A stretch of 64,000 bases of DNA from Kushneria avicenniae. Its GTDB lineage: Bacteria > Pseudomonadota > Gammaproteobacteria > Pseudomonadales > Halomonadaceae. The first letter of the stretch is position 1, and every line of letters begins with the position of its first letter. Below the pieces are notes generated by a model, which worked only from the letters and a program-made list of their open reading frames with translations, did not search any database and was not told the origin of the DNA. Made by a program: the position numbers and the translations under genes. Below, in pieces: positions 52,531-60,082 of the stretch. Location of the stretch: assembly GCF_900112585.1 (NCBI RefSeq), contig NZ_FOLY01000008.1, positions 1-64,000 on the forward strand. Direction: 5' to 3'.

Positions 52531-54696
52531 ATGGAAAAGCCATCCTGCCGTCGGCGTGCGCCTGCGACACCGTCTGCACGTCGAATGGGGTTTGACGGTC
52601 GTCACGTCTCGACCGCCATGCTCACCAGCGCCTGCCTGATCACACCCGTCATGGCTCAGGCCGATGACGCCGCCATGGATACCCTCACGATCACGGCCTC
52701 CAATCTTTACGAGAACGTGGGCTATACCCGGCGCACCATAAATGCCGGTACGCGGATGAACCTCTCACCAAAGTAGATTCCGCAATCCGTCAGTGTCATG
52801 ACCGAGCAGCGCATCAGGGATCAGAACCTGCGGGATTTTGAAGATATTCTGGCCAATACCACGGGCATTTCCGTATCGACCATCGACAGTACCCGGCGCA
52901 GCTTTTATTCCCGCGGTTTTTTGATCAACAACTATCAGTTTGATGACATCCCAACGACCGTTCAGCCGCAGTGGTATATGGGGGATGCGGCACTGGATAG
53001 CGCCATCTATGACCGTGTGGAGGTTGTGCGTGGCGCCAATGGTCTGCTGACGGGGGCCGGCAACCCGGGGGCTTCAGTCAACTTCGTGCGAAAACATGCC
53101 GACGCTTACAGGCCGACAGGCACCATCTCCGGTGAGCTGGGCAGTCGGGGCCATGGTCGTACAGTGATCGACGCGCAGACACCGCTGACCGAATCCGGCG
53201 ACGTCAGGGGGCGTTTCGTCGGTGGTTATGAAGATGGCAACGGCATTCTGGATCGCTTCAGCGAGCGCAAGAAGTTTGGCTATGCCGTGATCGATGCCGA
53301 TGTCACGGACAACACGACCGTATCGCTGGGATATGAATATCAGAACACCCATCAAAACGATGTGACCTGGGGCGGGCTGCCGGTGTTATACAGCGACGGT
53401 GGCCGCACGGACTTTGATCGGGATTTCAGCGTTGCGCCGCGATGGTCCTTTTATGATTACGATTCGGAAAAGGTCTTTGCCGAGCTGAACCATCAGTTCG
53501 ATAACGGCTGGGAGCTGCGCGGGGTCGCCACCCATGCCACGCTCGACAGTGACAGCAGGCTTTTATACATGTTCGGCTTTCCTGACCGTCAGTCAGGACT
53601 GGGGCTCAATGGCGGTGCAGGACATTATGAAAGCACGCGTCGGATGGATGCCGTGGATACCTATGTTGATGGCCCCTTCGAGCTGTTGGGTCGTGAACAC
53701 GAGCTGGTGGCGGGCATCAGCTATAACCGGCAGCACACTCGCCACGAAGGGGCTTACAGGACTGTCGATACGTCATCGGTGGACATCCATCAGTTTGATG
53801 GCCGCATCGAAGAGCCCGAGTGGACCGGGATAACCACGCTGGTAGACGACGTGACCCGGCAGCGTGCCTTCTACACGGCTACCCGACTGTCGTTGACCGA
53901 TCCCCTGACCCTGATTCTGGGCGCGCGCTATACCGACTGGCAAAACGACGGCCTGCAGACCTCCCGGCATCATGAGGAAGTCGTTCCCTATGGCGGGTTG
54001 GTGTATGACATCAACGATACCTGGTCGGCCTTTGCCAGCTACACCGAAATCTTCATGCCACAGGACTATCGAGACCAGAGCGGTGCCTATCTTGATCCCA
54101 TCACCGGCAAGAACTACGAAACCGGTCTCAAGGCAGGCTGGCATGATGATCGTCTGACGGCGTCCTTCTCCATCTTCCGCCTCGAGCAGGACAACGTCGC
54201 CCAGGCCGACGGCAATGCCATCGTACAGAGCACTGGAGATCAGGCCTATACGGCTGCCCGGGGCGTCGTCAGTGAAGGGTTTGATTTTGAACTCAACGGC
54301 GCCGTGACCGAACGTCTGGACACAACGCTGGGGATCACTCGCTACACCGCGAAAAACGATGAGGGTGGCGTCAATACCGGCCAGCCGCGTACTCAGATCA
54401 AGCTCTTCTCGAGCTATCGTGTGCCCCAGTGGGAAAAGCTGACCGTTGGCGGCGGCGTCAAGTGGCAGAATCGTACCTTTAACGATATTGCCAATCCGGA
54501 CGGCGGGACTACGCGGGTGCAGGAAGGCAGCTACGGGCTGGTGGATCTGTTCGGACGTTATCAGTTCACGCCCGACCTGTCGCTACAGGCCAACATCAGG
54601 AATCTGTTCGACAAGGAGTACTACGGCTACCTTAGCGCTTCCGGAGTCTATGGCGCGCCGCGTAGCGCCACAGCGACGCTGACGTACTCGTTCTAA
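52531..54696 (+). pseudogene. FhuE-like TonB-dependent siderophore receptor gene with an in-frame amber codon
   Basis: From the ATG at 52531 the frame encodes a signal peptide (ending TPVMAQADDA) and TonB box DTLTITASN, and then meets a TAG at codon 82 (52774-52776) within the plug motif, where a Gln is usual (SP-x-IPQSVSVMTEQRI). The frame then runs open for 640 codons with QNLRDFEDILANTTGISVS, SRGFLINNYQFDDIP, VVRGANGLLTGAGNPGASVN and ends in an aromatic residue (TATLTYSF). At 722 codons it matches the length of E. coli FhuE (coprogen/rhodotorulate receptor). A CAG to TAG change would explain it. Internal restart at ATG 52798 would lack the signal peptide and be non-functional. Confidence 0.88.
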
Positions 54697-54716
54697 CCTC
54701 GCTGCCACGACTCACT

Positions 54717-54738
54717 CGGCCGACAATTCTGTCGGCCG
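54717..54738 (+). terminator. Terminator of the FhuE-like receptor gene
   Basis: An 8-bp perfect inverted repeat (CGGCCGAC / GTCGGCCG) around a 6-base loop, followed directly by TTTTATT. It starts 21 bases after the receptor stop. Confidence 0.88.
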
Positions 54739-54806
54739 TTTTATTCGTATTCGCTTAAATGACCGCGCTACACTGGGGGCCAATTCCACATTCGTGGCGC
54801 CTTCTA

Positions 54807-55175
54807 ATGTCCTCCGGTCCGCTCATCACGCTTGCTCGCTTCACCTTTCCCCACGAGGCCCATGTGTTCATGGGGCTGCTGGAATCCCGGGGCCTTGCGG
54901 CCTTCATCGCTGATGAGCACCTGATCACGATGCAGTGGATGTGGGAGACCGCGCTGGGTGGTGTGAAGGTACAGGTAGCCCCGCACGACCTTGAGGCCGC
55001 CAAAGAGGTACTGGCGGACCATCAGGCGCATCGACTGGCCATGTCTTCGTCCGCGTCTGAAGCTTCGACACCGCCTGGTGCGATGCGCTTTTACGGCTGG
55101 CGGGCGTTGGTGATGGCCTGCTGGGCGGTAACGGGCGTGGTGTTTCCGCTGCCGCGGCACCAGAGGAGATGTTGA
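54807..55175 (+). CDS. DUF2007 domain protein (putative signal-transducing protein)
   Basis: A 122-residue protein. Residues 1-75 match the short DUF2007 fold: ARFTFPHEAHVFMGLLESRG, then a hydrophilic turn, then VKVQVAPHDLEAAKEVLADH. The C-terminal 45 residues are predicted to include one hydrophobic stretch (ALVMACWAVTGVVFPL), and then end abruptly in basic residues, so a frameshifted or shortened tail is possible. The ATG at 54807 is chosen because the domain starts there. Function unknown; the GC content drops sharply just after this gene. Confidence 0.75.
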   Translation: MSSGPLITLARFTFPHEAHVFMGLLESRGLAAFIADEHLITMQWMWETALGGVKVQVAPHDLEAAKEVLADHQAHRLAMSSSASEASTPPGAMRFYGWRALVMACWAVTGVVFPLPRHQRRC

Positions 55176-55623
55176 GCAGTAATTGATAGGCGCCCACCCC
55201 GGATAGACCAATATCTAATGTAAATATAAGTGACATTACGTTCGCGACGTATTAGCTTGCATCAGGTTCTGCTTCTGGATGCTATCGATCAATGCTTGGC
55301 GTGCCGCACGAGCCTTGATGCTGTTTGTACATGCTTTGAAAAGATGCGGATCAGCCTATTAATGAATCCGTATTTAATGCGGGTCCATGCGTCAAATGTT
55401 GAATAAAGTGTTGGCTATCGATCCAAAGCGGGGATGGTAGCAAAGGCAGCAAACGCGTTTATTGGTGCTATATGGCAGTCGCAAGGAAAGTGTCCATAAA
55501 AATCAGCAATTTGATAGTGAGGTATAAAAATATTGAACTCGCGCGCACGTTCAAGTAGGAAAACGCGCGTGCTACCTAATGCCTGTTAAGCGTTACTGCG
55601 TAGCTCAAGTTTGGAGGGGAATT
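55176..55623. other. AT-rich intergenic region upstream of the dual-OB operon
   Basis: 448 bp without a recognisable gene on either strand. Composition changes here from the GC-rich host average to AT-rich, marking the left edge of the transferred block. It must contain the promoter of the operon starting at 55624. No tRNA, integrase or insertion-sequence terminal repeat was found. Confidence 0.6.
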
Positions 55624-56238
55624 ATGAACAATGTTGAAATAGTGATTCTGGCAAATTCCGTAAAGCATCAGCAGCACTGTGTTGCTGGAAAATGCACCGC
55701 TACTGGCCAGTGGGTGCGGCCGGTCTCGAATGAAAATGGTGCGGAATTGAGTCACGAGGAAGCTCTGTGCCAGAATCCACATGGAACTTTCAATGTGAAG
55801 CCTTTGCAGAAAGTTTTTATGAGTTTTTCTGCTTATGCTCCTTTGGTACACCAGCCAGAAAACTATGTAATAGACGGATCTACGTGGCGGCAAAATTATA
55901 GGATTTCAGACGATGAGTTAAGCCAGCACCTAGATCAACCTGACGATATATGGGGTAATGAAGATCGAGTACCTTATGCATCTATTTTATCAGGACAGAT
56001 TGTAGTTGGACAATCCCTATATCTAATAGTCGTCGATAATTTGAATTTATACAGAAATCAGTATAATCGACGAAGAGCATCATTTTCGTATTGCGGAACT
56101 AACTACGATCTCGCTGTTACGGACCCTGAATTTGACAGAATCACTCAAAACGACAAGGCAGTTAGAGGAGTTTTATGTGTGAGCCTAGGTGAAGAGTACC
56201 AAGGCGACTGCTTCAAGCTCGTTGCGACTGTTTTCTAG
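55624..56238 (+). CDS. Dual OB-fold family protein
   Basis: A 204-residue cytoplasmic protein. The N-terminus MNNVEIVILANSVKHQQHCVAG and TGQWVRPVSNENGAELSHEE match the family known as dual OB-containing proteins, in which two small beta-barrels are predicted; the second half (GQSLYLIVVDNLNLYRNQ, RRASFSYCGTNYDLAVTDP) fits the second barrel. No catalytic residue is obvious. GGAGGGGAATT is an excellent ribosome binding site before the ATG at 55624; the frame also opens at 55579. It is the first gene of an AT-rich operon with DUF488 and DUF4326 genes. The function is unknown; OB folds suggest nucleic-acid binding (inference). Confidence 0.75.
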   Translation: MNNVEIVILANSVKHQQHCVAGKCTATGQWVRPVSNENGAELSHEEALCQNPHGTFNVKPLQKVFMSFSAYAPLVHQPENYVIDGSTWRQNYRISDDELSQHLDQPDDIWGNEDRVPYASILSGQIVVGQSLYLIVVDNLNLYRNQYNRRRASFSYCGTNYDLAVTDPEFDRITQNDKAVRGVLCVSLGEEYQGDCFKLVATVF

Positions 56239-56249
56239 TAGGAAATACT

Positions 56250-56690
56250 ATGAAAGTTTATACGATTGGATTTACACAAAAGGACGCGGAAAAATTCTTT
56301 AGTTTCCTAAAGGTGTCGCAAGTTAAGACCTTGATTGATGTTCGTCTTAATAATGTGTCTCAGTTATCTGGATTTGCAAAAAGGGACGATCTAAGATTCT
56401 TTTTGAAAGAGCTGTGTGGTGCTGATTATGCGCATTTGCCAGAGCTGGCACCTACAAAAGATATTCTTAGCGCATATAAAAAAGGTGATATGCCATGGAG
56501 GCAATATGAGGATAAATTCCTTAACCTAATGGCGCAAAGGAATGTCGAGAAATCAATCGTGCCATCGCTCCTAGATCATGGGTGTTTGCTGTGCTCCGAA
56601 CACGAACCGCATTTTTGCCACAGACGGCTAGTTGTGGATTATTTAAACGAAAACTCCAGTTTGGATCTCAAGGTTAAACATTTATACTGA
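56250..56690 (+). CDS. DUF488 family protein
   Basis: A 146-residue protein. The DUF488 signature parts are present: VYTIGFTQKDAEKFFSFLK at the N-terminus, LIDVRLNNVSQLSGFAKRDD, ADYAHLPELAPT, and the Cys/His motif CLLCSEHEPHFCHRRLVVDYL near residues 110-130. The shortness of the N-terminal linker and the VDVR-type Asp-Arg are conserved in the family, whose biochemical role is not established. AGGAAA precedes the ATG, 11 bp after the previous gene, and its stop overlaps the next start (TGATG). AT-rich codon use, unlike the neighbours. Confidence 0.85.
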   Translation: MKVYTIGFTQKDAEKFFSFLKVSQVKTLIDVRLNNVSQLSGFAKRDDLRFFLKELCGADYAHLPELAPTKDILSAYKKGDMPWRQYEDKFLNLMAQRNVEKSIVPSLLDHGCLLCSEHEPHFCHRRLVVDYLNENSSLDLKVKHLY

Positions 56691-57295
56691 TGAAAAAAAT
56701 CCTGGTTCTTTATCCGAAGCTTTTTAAATGCTATCAGAAATTTAATAGAAAAGTTGAAAAAATACTCTCTGCTTCAGATGAGGTTGAGTTGATTTATCCA
56801 TCGGATGATAATTGTTTTATCCAGCGGATGTCTGATGAGAGCCAAAAAGTTGGTTCGATTCGGCGATCTGAAAATTGGAGTGTGAGCGGCATAACCCACG
56901 CGATTGTTTTCGATGACGGTGAAGAGTTTCCAAAAGAGGTTGAGCTGCTCAAAAAAAACTCTGTTCCTCTTCGATTTATAAATATTGCTATCACTCGAGT
57001 GATCAATATTAAACGTGAGCCAAATTATAAAGGCCTAAAAAGTACGCCCGATTACGAGTACATCGGGCGGGGATCGTATTGGGGCAACCCTTATTCAATG
57101 TATGAGGACGGTGAAGAGAGAGAAGAGGTTATTAGGAAGTATAAATACGATTTTGATTTTGAGAAATTTCCAAACAAGGAAAAAAAAGAGGTGTACAAAC
57201 TTGCAGGGAAACGTTTGGGGTGTTTCTGTAAACCAGATTCGTGTCATGGAGATGTGTTGGCAGACTTTTTGAATTCATGGGATGACGGTAAGTGA
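56690..57295 (+). CDS. DUF4326 family protein with an N-terminal Rossmann-like extension
   Basis: A 201-residue protein. The C-terminal 95 residues match DUF4326: YIGRGSYWGNPYSMYEDGEE, EEVIRKYKYDF and LAGKRLGCFCKPDSCHGDVL, with the conserved GRGSxWGNP and CxCKPxxCHGD motifs. The N-terminal 100 residues (KKILVLYPKLFKCYQKFNRK, ITHAIVFDDGEEFPKEVELL) alternate strands and helices like a Rossmann-type nucleotide-binding domain; that part is a guess. It overlaps the preceding DUF488 gene by one base. DUF4326 has no established activity; the Cys-rich motif may bind metal or a nucleobase (inference). Confidence 0.85.
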   Translation: MKKILVLYPKLFKCYQKFNRKVEKILSASDEVELIYPSDDNCFIQRMSDESQKVGSIRRSENWSVSGITHAIVFDDGEEFPKEVELLKKNSVPLRFINIAITRVINIKREPNYKGLKSTPDYEYIGRGSYWGNPYSMYEDGEEREEVIRKYKYDFDFEKFPNKEKKEVYKLAGKRLGCFCKPDSCHGDVLADFLNSWDDGK

Positions 57296-57715
57296 TCGCT
57301 TAATAAAGCGCTGCTGTCGGACAAATTTTACGCTGCACTCCAAATTTGCCGCAGAGCGCGGAGTTACATCAGACCTAGCTAAAATTCCACCCCTAACCGA
57401 AAGCAGCCCTTCTCCGTTCCTTGCCTGAAAGGCGGCGCTTTATATTCCTGTCTCTTGATCATGCGCATTGGTTGGCTCTGAAAGCGACGATTCCTCGATA
57501 ACAGCCGGCAAGCAATGCAAGCATCACTTGTCCTGATATCGCGCTGGCACTTGTATATACGGTGCCATCGGGACATTCCTGCGTCTGTCTCATGACACAC
57601 AGCGATGAAGGCCTCCGCGTCAACCAGAGGTCATGAACCCCATGGCTTCTCTTTTACGGTGCCTGTGAGGTTTCATGTTTGGTATACCAGCCCCTTGAAC
57701 AGGATATAAGCGGAT
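57296..57715. other. Intergenic region after the AT-rich operon
   Basis: 420 bp. AT-rich at the left end, returning to host composition by about 57,380. A 73-codon leftward frame (57379-57600) has a string of basic residues and no recognisable domain, and is not reported as a gene. No clear terminator was found; the promoter of the hydrolase at 57716 is expected near 57,640-57,700. Confidence 0.5.
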
Positions 57716-58504
57716 ATGCCTTCGCAAAACGCAGGCAGCGTCGTGGTCGCGCTGGCACAGATGCCGGTATTGAGAGGCGCTGTCGCCGAAAATCTGGCCA
57801 CGCATCTATGCTGCATCGAGCGTGCGGCGGAGCACGGTGCTGATGTGGTCGCCTTTCCCGAACTCTCGCTCATCGGCTACGAGTCTGACCTGCTGGCGCA
57901 GTTGGCCATGTCCGAGAAGGCCGAGGCCTTCACAACGCTTTCCGATGCCGCCATGGCACACCACCTGGTCGTGGTCGCGGGTTGTCCGCTGGTCAATGAC
58001 GGCGGCAAACCTTACATCGGCGCGGTCATCTGCTTCCCTGACGGGGCGCGTGCGTTTTACGCCAAGCAGCACCTGCACGATGGGGAAGCGGCGTACTGCG
58101 CGCCGGGTCATAAAGAGTGCCTCTTCACTGTCAACGGCGTGCGCATCGTCCTGGCGGTGTGCGCTGATTTTGTCCACCCTGCCCATGCAGAGGCCGCCGC
58201 GGCCCAACAGGCGCAGATCTATCTGGTCAGTGCGATGATCTCGGAAGCAGGGTATGACGCCGATGCAGAACTGCTTGCCGGGATTGCGCGGCGTCACCGG
58301 TTTCCGGTGCTGCTTTCCAACCATATCTCTCGTACCGGTGGCTGGCAGACCTGCGGCAAAAGCGGCGGCTGGGATACAAGGGGAGAGCCACTACTTCCCG
58401 TGACCAGACACCTGGTGCCTGCCCAAAACGCTGAGCCTTCTCTTGTCATTTGTGCCCTTGAAGCACGGGGTCTTGAGGTGTCAGTAGCGTCCGTCACGAT
58501 ATGA
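57716..58504 (+). CDS. Carbon-nitrogen hydrolase (nitrilase superfamily)
   Basis: A 262-residue amidase-type enzyme. The catalytic triad is visible as Glu49 in VVAFPELSLIGYE, Lys117 in RAFYAKQHLHDGE and Cys149 in IVLAVCADFVHPA. A cis-Glu/Tyr pair around residues 125-130 fits the family. It is monocistronic, and followed about 200 bp later by an MFS gene. The substrate (an amide, nitrile or ureido compound) cannot be read. Confidence 0.88.
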   Translation: MPSQNAGSVVVALAQMPVLRGAVAENLATHLCCIERAAEHGADVVAFPELSLIGYESDLLAQLAMSEKAEAFTTLSDAAMAHHLVVVAGCPLVNDGGKPYIGAVICFPDGARAFYAKQHLHDGEAAYCAPGHKECLFTVNGVRIVLAVCADFVHPAHAEAAAAQQAQIYLVSAMISEAGYDADAELLAGIARRHRFPVLLSNHISRTGGWQTCGKSGGWDTRGEPLLPVTRHLVPAQNAEPSLVICALEARGLEVSVASVTI

Positions 58505-58705
58505 GGGACGAGAGTGACCGATAGCGCCCGGGCGGTCATTCGACAAGGCTTGATGCCTGCTCGTCCTTTTGTTTGACCGGGTCGCGGCGCTTTTCTAGAT
58601 ACTTGTATTTTTGTACAGTATTTTCTTGGGCAGGTGTGCAGTCGATAAAAGCCTGTTCAACGCTGCCTTCAATGAAGTTCCCTACCATTCAGCGTCGTGG
58701 CATCA

Positions 58706-60082
58706 ATGACTGATTCACTCAACCCCTCCTCTGACAAGGGGTATGCACCCGGTCTTTTCTCGAAGGACTATCGCGCGCTCAGCCTCAGCCTGTTCTGCAT
58801 CACAGTGCTTGTGGCTTTTGAAGCACTGGCCGTGGCGACCGCCATGCCGGTCATTGCGGATCATCTGGATGGCCTGTCGCTTTATGCGCTGGCCTACGCA
58901 GGCCCTGTGGCTGCCAGTGTGATCGGCATGGCCGCAGCGGGCTGGTTGAGTAATGCCCGCGGCCCGCGGCCGGCGTTTTTGATCGGCGCTGTCTGTTTTG
59001 CCAGCGGTCTTTTGATTGCAGGCTCGGCGCCGACGATGACAGTTCTCGTGGCAGGGCGCGTTGTGCAGGGGCTGGGCGGCGGGGCAATCTCTGTTGCCGT
59101 CTATGTGATCGTGGCGCGCGCCTATCCGTCTTCACTGCGCCCCAGCGTGTTCGCGCTGTTTTCGGCTGGATGGGTATTGCCATCTCTTGTTGGTCCGGTG
59201 GTCAGCGGCCTGATCGTGACTGCTTTAGGGTGGCGCTGGTTGTTTCTTTTGATTCCGGCGCTGCTCGTGCCTGTGGCGTGGGTCATCCTGGTGGCTCTGC
59301 GCCGAATCAGCGAGAATCGTCAGCCCTTCGAATCGCCCGGTCAGCTCATCTGGGCACTACTGGCGGCCGCCATGGTAGGCCTTGTCCATATCGGTGCGCA
59401 TTCGCAGGGTCTGCTGCAGTGGTGGCTACTGATGGGCGGTCTGGCCGGGCTGTTGACGATCATGCCGCGCATGCTTCCGAAAGGGACGTTCAGGCTGCAC
59501 CAGGGGCTACCGAGGGTCATTGCCCTGCGGATGACGCTCGGTGCGACATTTTTTGCCAGCGAAGCGTTCATTCCATTATTGCTCGAACACGAGCACGGCC
59601 TCTCTCCCGTCATGGCAGGTCTCGCGCTCAGCGTGGGGGCTATCAGCTGGTTTCTGGGGGCCTGGATTCAGAGACGCCCCGGCCTGCAGGGGCGGCGGCT
59701 GCCGCTGGCAGGGATGTGCGCAATGAGCGCCGGGCTTCTGGTCATTTTTCTTTCACAGCTCGTCTGGCGCTCTGTCATCCCCATCATGGCTGGCTGGGGG
59801 CTGGTCGGGCTGGGCATGGGACTGGGATATGCGAGTCTTTCTGTATTGACGCTGGCTCTGACGCCAGAGGATGAGCAGGGAACGACCGGGGCGGCGCTTC
59901 AACTGGCCGATGCGCTATCGATCGCGATGGCCCTGAGCGTGGGTGGCATTGCCATTGGCCATCTGACTGCCGGCGATCCCATGATTTACGCGCTTTGTTT
60001 TGGATTTACGCTGCTGCTGGCGTGTGCAGGCCTGTTGATTGCGGCCTTTTTACCGCAGGCTGGACGGCGTGGTGCAGCTTGA
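58706..60082 (+). CDS. Major facilitator superfamily transporter (DHA2-like exporter)
   Basis: A 458-residue inner-membrane protein with about 14 hydrophobic segments. It has the MFS motif A-like loop GWLSNARGPRPAFLIGAV (residues 70-90) and motif C-like VLPSLVGPVVSGLIV near 150-165, which indicates a proton-driven exporter of the DHA2/EmrB type. A GTG at 58697 three codons earlier is an alternative start; ribosome binding site is weak for both. Substrate unknown. Confidence 0.87.
   Translation: MTDSLNPSSDKGYAPGLFSKDYRALSLSLFCITVLVAFEALAVATAMPVIADHLDGLSLYALAYAGPVAASVIGMAAAGWLSNARGPRPAFLIGAVCFASGLLIAGSAPTMTVLVAGRVVQGLGGGAISVAVYVIVARAYPSSLRPSVFALFSAGWVLPSLVGPVVSGLIVTALGWRWLFLLIPALLVPVAWVILVALRRISENRQPFESPGQLIWALLAAAMVGLVHIGAHSQGLLQWWLLMGGLAGLLTIMPRMLPKGTFRLHQGLPRVIALRMTLGATFFASEAFIPLLLEHEHGLSPVMAGLALSVGAISWFLGAWIQRRPGLQGRRLPLAGMCAMSAGLLVIFLSQLVWRSVIPIMAGWGLVGLGMGLGYASLSVLTLALTPEDEQGTTGAALQLADALSIAMALSVGGIAIGHLTAGDPMIYALCFGFTLLLACAGLLIAAFLPQAGRRGAA

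What the first reader, a model, noticed from the sequence alone, without database searches (positions are those of the whole stretch)
55624..57295. AT-rich three-gene operon: dual-OB protein, DUF488, DUF4326
Three small genes with tight spacing (11 bp, then a one-base overlap) form an operon whose base composition differs sharply from the surrounding high-GC DNA, which indicates transfer as a unit. Two encode domains of unknown function with conserved Cys/His or Cys-x-Cys motifs, one a dual-OB protein; the third also carries an N-terminal Rossmann-like extension. A self-contained, mobile-looking cassette of nucleic-acid-like and nucleotide-like folds next to no metabolic partner could be a defence, nucleotide-signalling or nucleotide-sanitising system. 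I know of no established function for the trio.
Basis: partly seen in the sequence, partly recalled or inferred. Interest (0 to 1): 0.8.

Follow-up and report, generated by a model that had tools for sequence, protein, structure and literature searches.

The report
Mobile three-gene candidate phage-defence cassette
Three foreign-looking bacterial genes form a cassette that recurs in the same order in many unrelated bacteria, often beside known anti-virus systems, so they probably work together against invading DNA, although this has not been tested in the laboratory here.

Summary
Window 55624-57295 holds three tight co-directional genes: DuOB (PF22557), DUF488 (PF04343) and minimal SLOG fused to DUF4326 (PF22565+PF14216). 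GC3 is 0.39-0.40 against 0.68-0.78 in five neighbours. DuOB is absent from 9 of 9 congeners searched; the site is empty in three and holds other defence-type genes in two. Of 80 loci found with this DUF488, 35 carry mSLOG-DUF4326, 37 a second DUF488 instead, none both; 60 of these 72 also have DuOB. Genes beside 16 such trios include Gabija, type I restriction, CBASS and Lamassu; a same-contig control was nearly free of them. PADLOC already lists DuOB and this DUF488 as candidate PDC-M45. So: a new member of a known, untested kind. Two leads were not found in print: the same DUF488 was recruited at least twice, alone, beside uvrA or uvrB in plasmid formaldehyde-resistance clusters, hinting at DNA as substrate; and a ~175-bp repeat just upstream also precedes varied AT-rich cargo in 40 of 151 family genomes. 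No step of the mechanism is shown.

The parts
55174..55429 (.). left edge of the hotspot, shared in part with congeners G001 and G003
   Evidence: blastn and alignment of congener sites
55413..55588 (+). repeated non-coding element just upstream of the trio
   Evidence: recurs in 40 of 151 family genomes; sharp ends in an alignment of 23 copies
55624..56238 (+). DuOB, tandem-OB protein, 204 aa
   Evidence: Pfam PF22557 1.1e-46; PADLOC PDC-M45A 8.3e-41; confident model
56250..56690 (+). DUF488, conserved core enzyme candidate, 146 aa
   Evidence: Pfam PF04343 1.7e-23; PADLOC PDC-M45C 1.2e-66; conserved C115, C123-H-R
56690..57295 (+). mSLOG-DUF4326, 201 aa (mSLOG residues 1-105, DUF4326 residues 114-191)
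   Evidence: Pfam PF22565 4.9e-41 and PF14216 8e-20; no PADLOC match
57397..57487 (.). right edge of the hotspot, shared with congeners G001 and G003
   Evidence: blastn of congener sites

Best explanation
A horizontally acquired, self-contained anti-invader (most likely anti-phage) cassette of the DuOB-DUF488 kind that acts on DNA. Proposed working: DuOB, two OB folds in tandem, grips target DNA (an end, a lesion or an unusual base); DUF488, the constant core, does cysteine-dependent chemistry on that DNA or its terminal nucleotide; mSLOG-DUF4326 is a second cysteine enzyme that completes or regulates the reaction, its mSLOG part binding a nucleotide; in the other half of the systems a second DUF488 takes this seat. 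Foreign DNA is thereby blocked or marked. Shown: the genes, their unity, mobility, recurrence, the exchange of the third component, conserved Cys/His residues, defence surroundings. Inferred: defence function (about 0.75), DNA as substrate (about 0.5), roles of the single proteins (about 0.3). The chemical step is unknown.
For: Ordered, tight module in 27 M-type and 29 B-type loci of 80; third seat exclusive, 35 against 37, both 0, and 27 against 10, both 0, in 37 viral-collection loci. Site hotspot in the genus with PDC-S15 and PDC-S06 genes. Neighbours: 95 genes hit 228 PADLOC models, control of 96 genes 5; eight proteins confirmed one by one in 5 of 16 loci. E. coli copies in integrase islands. 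DNA: tandem OB model whose best PDB matches include HIN DNA receptors; two recruitments of the DUF488 beside uvrA/uvrB.
Against: No experiment. PADLOC has many models per system, so 228 against 5 overstates; 11 of 16 loci have no defence neighbour confirmed one by one (20 of 95 proteins scanned so). HIN similarity is weak, TM-score below 0.4. Profile comparison gives no firm link between DUF488 and DUF4326 (probability 28.5 over 19 columns; 0.6), so 'same clade' rests on papers. mSLOG-DUF4326 has no significant PDB fold match. The uvr link could reflect formaldehyde chemistry rather than DNA.
Confidence: 0.5

Rival explanations
1. A mobile DNA-damage or stress-tolerance cassette, not defence: DuOB finds lesions or ends, DUF488 and DUF4326 clean them, and the host gains under genotoxic stress.
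For: Solo DUF488 relatives beside uvrA or uvrB in formaldehyde-resistance clusters (5 of 7 plasmids opened; 88 records cover the uvrA-end plus DUF488 query by at least 80%).
Against: The trios themselves sit among defence genes; no uvrA or uvrB match appeared in any of the trio loci held when searched.
Confidence: 0.2
2. A nucleotide- or ADP-ribose-processing system: mSLOG senses or cleaves a signal nucleotide and the cysteine enzymes remove phosphates from ADP-ribose derivatives.
For: Proposed for DUF4326 in PMC9503650 (passage) from fusions with SLOG, Macro and NADAR; mSLOG is fused to DUF4326 here.
Against: No NAD-handling partner in the trio; mSLOG-DUF4326 is exchangeable for a second DUF488; DuOB has a tandem-OB fold.
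Confidence: 0.2
3. A plasmid-maintenance or toxin-antitoxin-like unit.
For: Carried on plasmids down to 4.2 kb; toxin-antitoxin genes near it in some records.
Against: Third component exchangeable, no small antitoxin-like partner, many chromosomal copies.
Confidence: 0.07

Closest known systems
PADLOC candidate system PDC-M45 (models PDC-M45A, B, C)
   Same: DuOB matches PDC-M45A (8.3e-41) and DUF488 matches PDC-M45C (1.2e-66)
   Different: mSLOG-DUF4326 matches no PADLOC model; PDC-M45B presumably is the second DUF488 of the other variant (inferred, not tested).
RapZ-C-DUF488-DUF4326 enzymes of the rhodanese-phosphatase superfamily (Burroughs and Aravind 2023, doi 10.1093/nargab/lqad029)
   Same: Domain names and the predicted role in conflict and nucleic-acid processing (clade name recalled; only the reference entry was seen; the paper is not held)
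   Different: Whether this exact trio is drawn there could not be checked
DUF4326 fusions of phages and large DNA viruses (PMC9503650, PMC7824862; passages)
   Same: DUF4326 fused to a SLOG-type domain
   Different: Phage records match the third protein mostly over DUF4326 only (3 of 1351 cover 80% of it), and the DUF488 finds only 7 phage records at under 30% identity
Uvr-linked formaldehyde-resistance clusters on plasmids and ICEs
   Same: Contain a close relative of this DUF488
   Different: No DuOB or DUF4326 annotated beside it; uvr plus formaldehyde genes are in print (PMC7156236, PMC11623301; passages), the DUF488 was not found with them in the one search made

Membership tests
PDC-M45 candidate defence system | protein matching PDC-M45A (DuOB) | tested here: met
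   8.3e-41
PDC-M45 candidate defence system | protein matching PDC-M45C (DUF488) | tested here: met
   1.2e-66
PDC-M45 candidate defence system | separate protein matching PDC-M45B | tested here: not met
   third protein has no PADLOC match; DUF488 itself matches M45B only weakly (3.3e-12). Whether the system definition demands B is unknown, so it is filed as a relative, not as a full PDC-M45
DuOB-DUF488 module (as defined by this survey) | DuOB and the conserved DUF488 adjacent in one orientation with either mSLOG-DUF4326 or a second DUF488 | tested here: met
DUF488/DUF4326 cysteine enzymes | conserved Cys and CH(R/G) motifs intact | tested here: met
Anti-phage defence system | protection against phage | not testable with these tools
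   needs plating assays
Anti-phage defence system | location among defence genes | tested here: met
HIN-type DNA receptor | HIN-200 fold | tested here: inconclusive
   Foldseek best hits are HIN domains, but TM-score below 0.4
Integron gene cassette (for the upstream element) | site ending GTTRRRY, beside an integron integrase, in arrays | tested here: inconclusive
   GTTRRRY in 11 of 22 located ends; half-copy beside an integrase in G600 and copies flanking cargo in G028 and G020; but integrase over cut-off in 7 of 40 element genomes against 27 of 111 others and no right-hand copy seen at the trio

The most novel reading that the evidence does not exclude
A two-enzyme DNA-attacking immune system in which a bacterial dual-OB protein works like a HIN-type foreign-DNA receptor and two cysteine enzymes carry out an undescribed chemistry on DNA ends or on modified or adducted bases. 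The same DUF488 enzyme, stripped of its partners, was twice made a partner of UvrA/UvrB in mobile formaldehyde resistance. In this bacterial family the system travels, like many other defence genes, in cassettes marked by a common ~175-bp integron-like site.
Probability: 0.18. Interest if true: 0.8.

Novelty: new member of a known kind. Interest (0 to 1): 0.55.

Why it matters
If the reading holds, a widespread but untested module (relatives here in Pseudomonadota, Planctomycetota, Acidobacteriota, Actinomycetota and others) becomes a defined target: one constant enzyme, one constant DNA-binding candidate and one exchangeable enzyme, none with a solved relative by sequence. The uvr/formaldehyde link offers a simple genetic assay of what DUF488 does. 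The repeated upstream element offers a homology-free way to find further mobile, possibly defensive, genes in this bacterial family.

Tried and rejected
Promoter-like, terminator-like and short repeats in and around the trio are near chance level. No Rfam match in 54000-58800; no tRNA in the window; NCBIfam gives nothing relevant for the trio. Foldseek with mSLOG-DUF4326: nothing at E up to 0.001. DuOB against viral models: one hit at E below 0.001, TM-score under 0.3. An RNA-structure reading of the upstream element is not supported: consensus energy -9.35 with covariation term +0.17, 2 of 22 pairs with a double change. Phage origin of the trio is unlikely. Profile comparison of DUF488 with DUF4326 was not convincing, while the two DUF488 types match clearly (probability 97).

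Of 17 eligible M-type loci I tested 16 for neighbours (L139 left out because its contig is short) and none of 18 eligible B-type loci. The neighbour set includes two divergent DuOB genes, in L121 and L133. Genes were called by a simple longest-ORF script.

Full report
Observation. The three genes, their spacing, domains, motifs and AT-rich composition are as described. The operon looks foreign: GC3 0.39-0.40 against 0.68-0.78 in five neighbours, and DuOB is found in 0 of 9 congeners, 0 of 27 other sampled genomes of the family and 1 of 21 of the order. A close relative (90% identity in DUF488) does occur in Salinicola endophyticus, listed in the same family, Halomonadaceae, so that sample did not catch every carrier.

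Where it sits. Between the DUF2007 gene and the carbon-nitrogen hydrolase gene, congeners G004, G005 and G009 have only 117-132 bp between matching flanks. G001 has YefM-YoeB, an MtlR-like gene, an FRG gene (PADLOC PDC-S15) and DUF5677; G003 has YefM-YoeB and an AAA_13/PrrC-like ATPase gene (PDC-S06). G008 is only partly comparable; G002, G006 and G007 gave no usable pair of flanks. The edges 55174-55429 and 57397-57487 are shared in part with G001 and G003. So the trio occupies a slot where this genus exchanges defence-type genes.

Recurrence. With profiles built here, 35 have mSLOG-DUF4326 within 2.5 kb, 37 a second DUF488 (DUF488B), none both, 7 neither and 1 DuOB only; 28 of the 35 and 32 of the 37 also have DuOB. 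Of three M-type loci where my profile saw no DuOB and I asked Pfam, two have a divergent DuOB above the cut-off and one a match below it (L121, L139, L133). Among 37 viral-contig loci, 27 are M-type, 10 B-type, none both. The standard gene order is kept in 27 M-type and 29 B-type loci of the 80, with median gaps of 15 and 5 nt, and 28 and 28 nt. In 321 genomes of the class, all 6 mSLOG genes above cut-off lie beside DuOB. So DuOB plus DUF488 is constant and the third seat is held by one of two enzymes. The DUF488 tree splits M-type from B-type rows (93/92), with one M-type row (L182, Comamonas, gene order changed) on the B side, which suggests a later exchange; many forks are unresolved.

Defence surroundings. 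Three genes on each side of 16 M-type trios (95 genes) hit 228 PADLOC models at E up to 1e-10; 96 genes roughly 65-110 kb away on the same contigs hit 5 models. PADLOC holds many models per system, so this ratio exaggerates. Of 20 proteins scanned one by one, eight, in five of the 16 loci, are defence proteins: GajA and GajB (Halodesulfovibrio), type I R and S subunits and PDC-S02 (Providencia), LmuB (Pseudomonas petrae), CBASS cyclase (Raoultella), PDC-M26A (Alteromonas). BstA, a 2TM effector and PDC-S66 appear only in the tally. In E. coli a related trio occurs in 14 of 5426 genomes, all on chromosomes; of four opened, three lie between ffs and ybaA with an integrase and one lies at icd near mcrA.

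What the parts look like. DUF488 is the most conserved part: 49-80% identity between the window and 13 relatives, with C115-S-E and C123-H-R in 117 of 117 rows. DUF4326 keeps C178, C180, C185-H-G-D in 53 of 53 rows. DuOB keeps S12, K14, C19, G22, W30, R32 and K198 in 76 of 76 rows. Its model is confident (mean pLDDT 96); most of the best PDB matches are HIN-200 DNA receptors, with other OB proteins, but TM-scores are below 0.4 and only three hits have E below 0.001. The mSLOG-DUF4326 model is confident too (94.6) but has no significant PDB fold match. No chain in the PDB matches the three profiles by sequence.

A hint at the substrate. 138 plasmid records match the window's DUF488. Of seven I opened, five have it beside uvrA or uvrB within formaldehyde-resistance genes (gaps of 192-376 nt, same strand), and two have it after another DUF488 gene, one near CBASS genes and one near CRISPR genes. 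A uvrA-end plus DUF488 query is covered by at least 80% in 88 plasmid records. The tree puts the five uvr-linked copies in two separate places among the trio DUF488 genes, and its well-supported branches force at least two changes. No uvr match was seen in the trio loci held. Formaldehyde plus uvr genes in an ICE and in fungal Starships are in print (PMC7156236, PMC11623301; passages); one search for DUF488 with formaldehyde listed only a Staphylococcus secretome paper. This favours action on damaged or adducted DNA, but chemistry on formaldehyde products is not excluded.

The upstream element. Window 55413-55588 recurs in 40 of 151 family genomes, up to five copies each, the long matches being about 70-82% identical; in a sample of 140 genomes of the order it was found in three, all of this family. 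Its ends are sharp. In 20 copies with downstream DNA the following 1.5 kb is always less GC-rich than the preceding stretch (medians 0.457 and 0.616), and in 18 of 20 a co-directional ORF starts -54 to +43 nt from the end of the match. Of 36 proteins downstream, Pfam names (25 of 30 families shown) include OLD-type ATPases, PIN, GmrSD, Mrr, DUF4365, SIR2 and CHAT, but also acetyltransferases. In G600 a half-copy lies between a divergent integron integrase gene and cargo, and in G028 and G020 copies flank cargo. Against an integron: the integrase passes its cut-off in 7 of 40 element genomes and 27 of 111 others, GTTRRRY is met in 11 of 22 located ends, and no right-hand copy was seen beside the trio. 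It is an observation, not a settled integron site.

Known or new. Pfam names, PADLOC PDC-M45 and papers of the Aravind group show that the parts are catalogued and suspected of conflict roles. Searches of the paper library for PDC-M45, for DUF488 with DUF4326, and for any two of DuOB, mSLOG, DUF488 and PDC-M45 found nothing; DUF4326 occurs in seven papers, of which I read passages of two. Subscription papers are mostly not in that library. I know of no experiment on the trio. Verdict: a new member of a known, untested kind, with two leads on what its core enzyme acts on and how such cassettes travel.

Noticed in passing
window 55413-55588; L284, L285, L312-L335: A sharply bounded ~175-bp repeat precedes varied AT-rich cargo, several of defence type, in 40 of 151 family genomes; integron-like in some respects, not in others.
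   Followed up: partly
L277, L278, L280, L281, L282: Solo DUF488 close to the trio's sits beside uvrA or uvrB in formaldehyde-resistance clusters on plasmids, from at least two separate recruitments.
   Followed up: partly
L023; L024: A 4.2-kb Citrobacter plasmid carries the trio; in the related Salmonella plasmid pA172 the DuOB region is split by a stretch with ISEcp1 and blaCMY-31. Described only.
   Followed up: no
phage collection; L028: 1351 phage records match mSLOG-DUF4326, mostly over DUF4326; three cover 80% of it, among them Vibrio phage Vp_R1, with a SLOG-like N-terminal part by eye. They might be counter-defence genes.
   Followed up: no
L147, L155, L160: In three B-type loci a gene with Schlafen AlbA_2 and HATPase_c_4 domains lies directly upstream of DuOB.
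   Followed up: no
L019 3487-5549: In an Aeromonas caviae record the DuOB match is in two pieces about 1.4 kb apart, as if by an insertion; the record of 4.9 Mb is listed as a plasmid.
   Followed up: no
L148, L167, L175, L178: Four Caldilineaceae loci have this DUF488 without DuOB or a third component in the DNA held, and form one clade (100/99).
   Followed up: no
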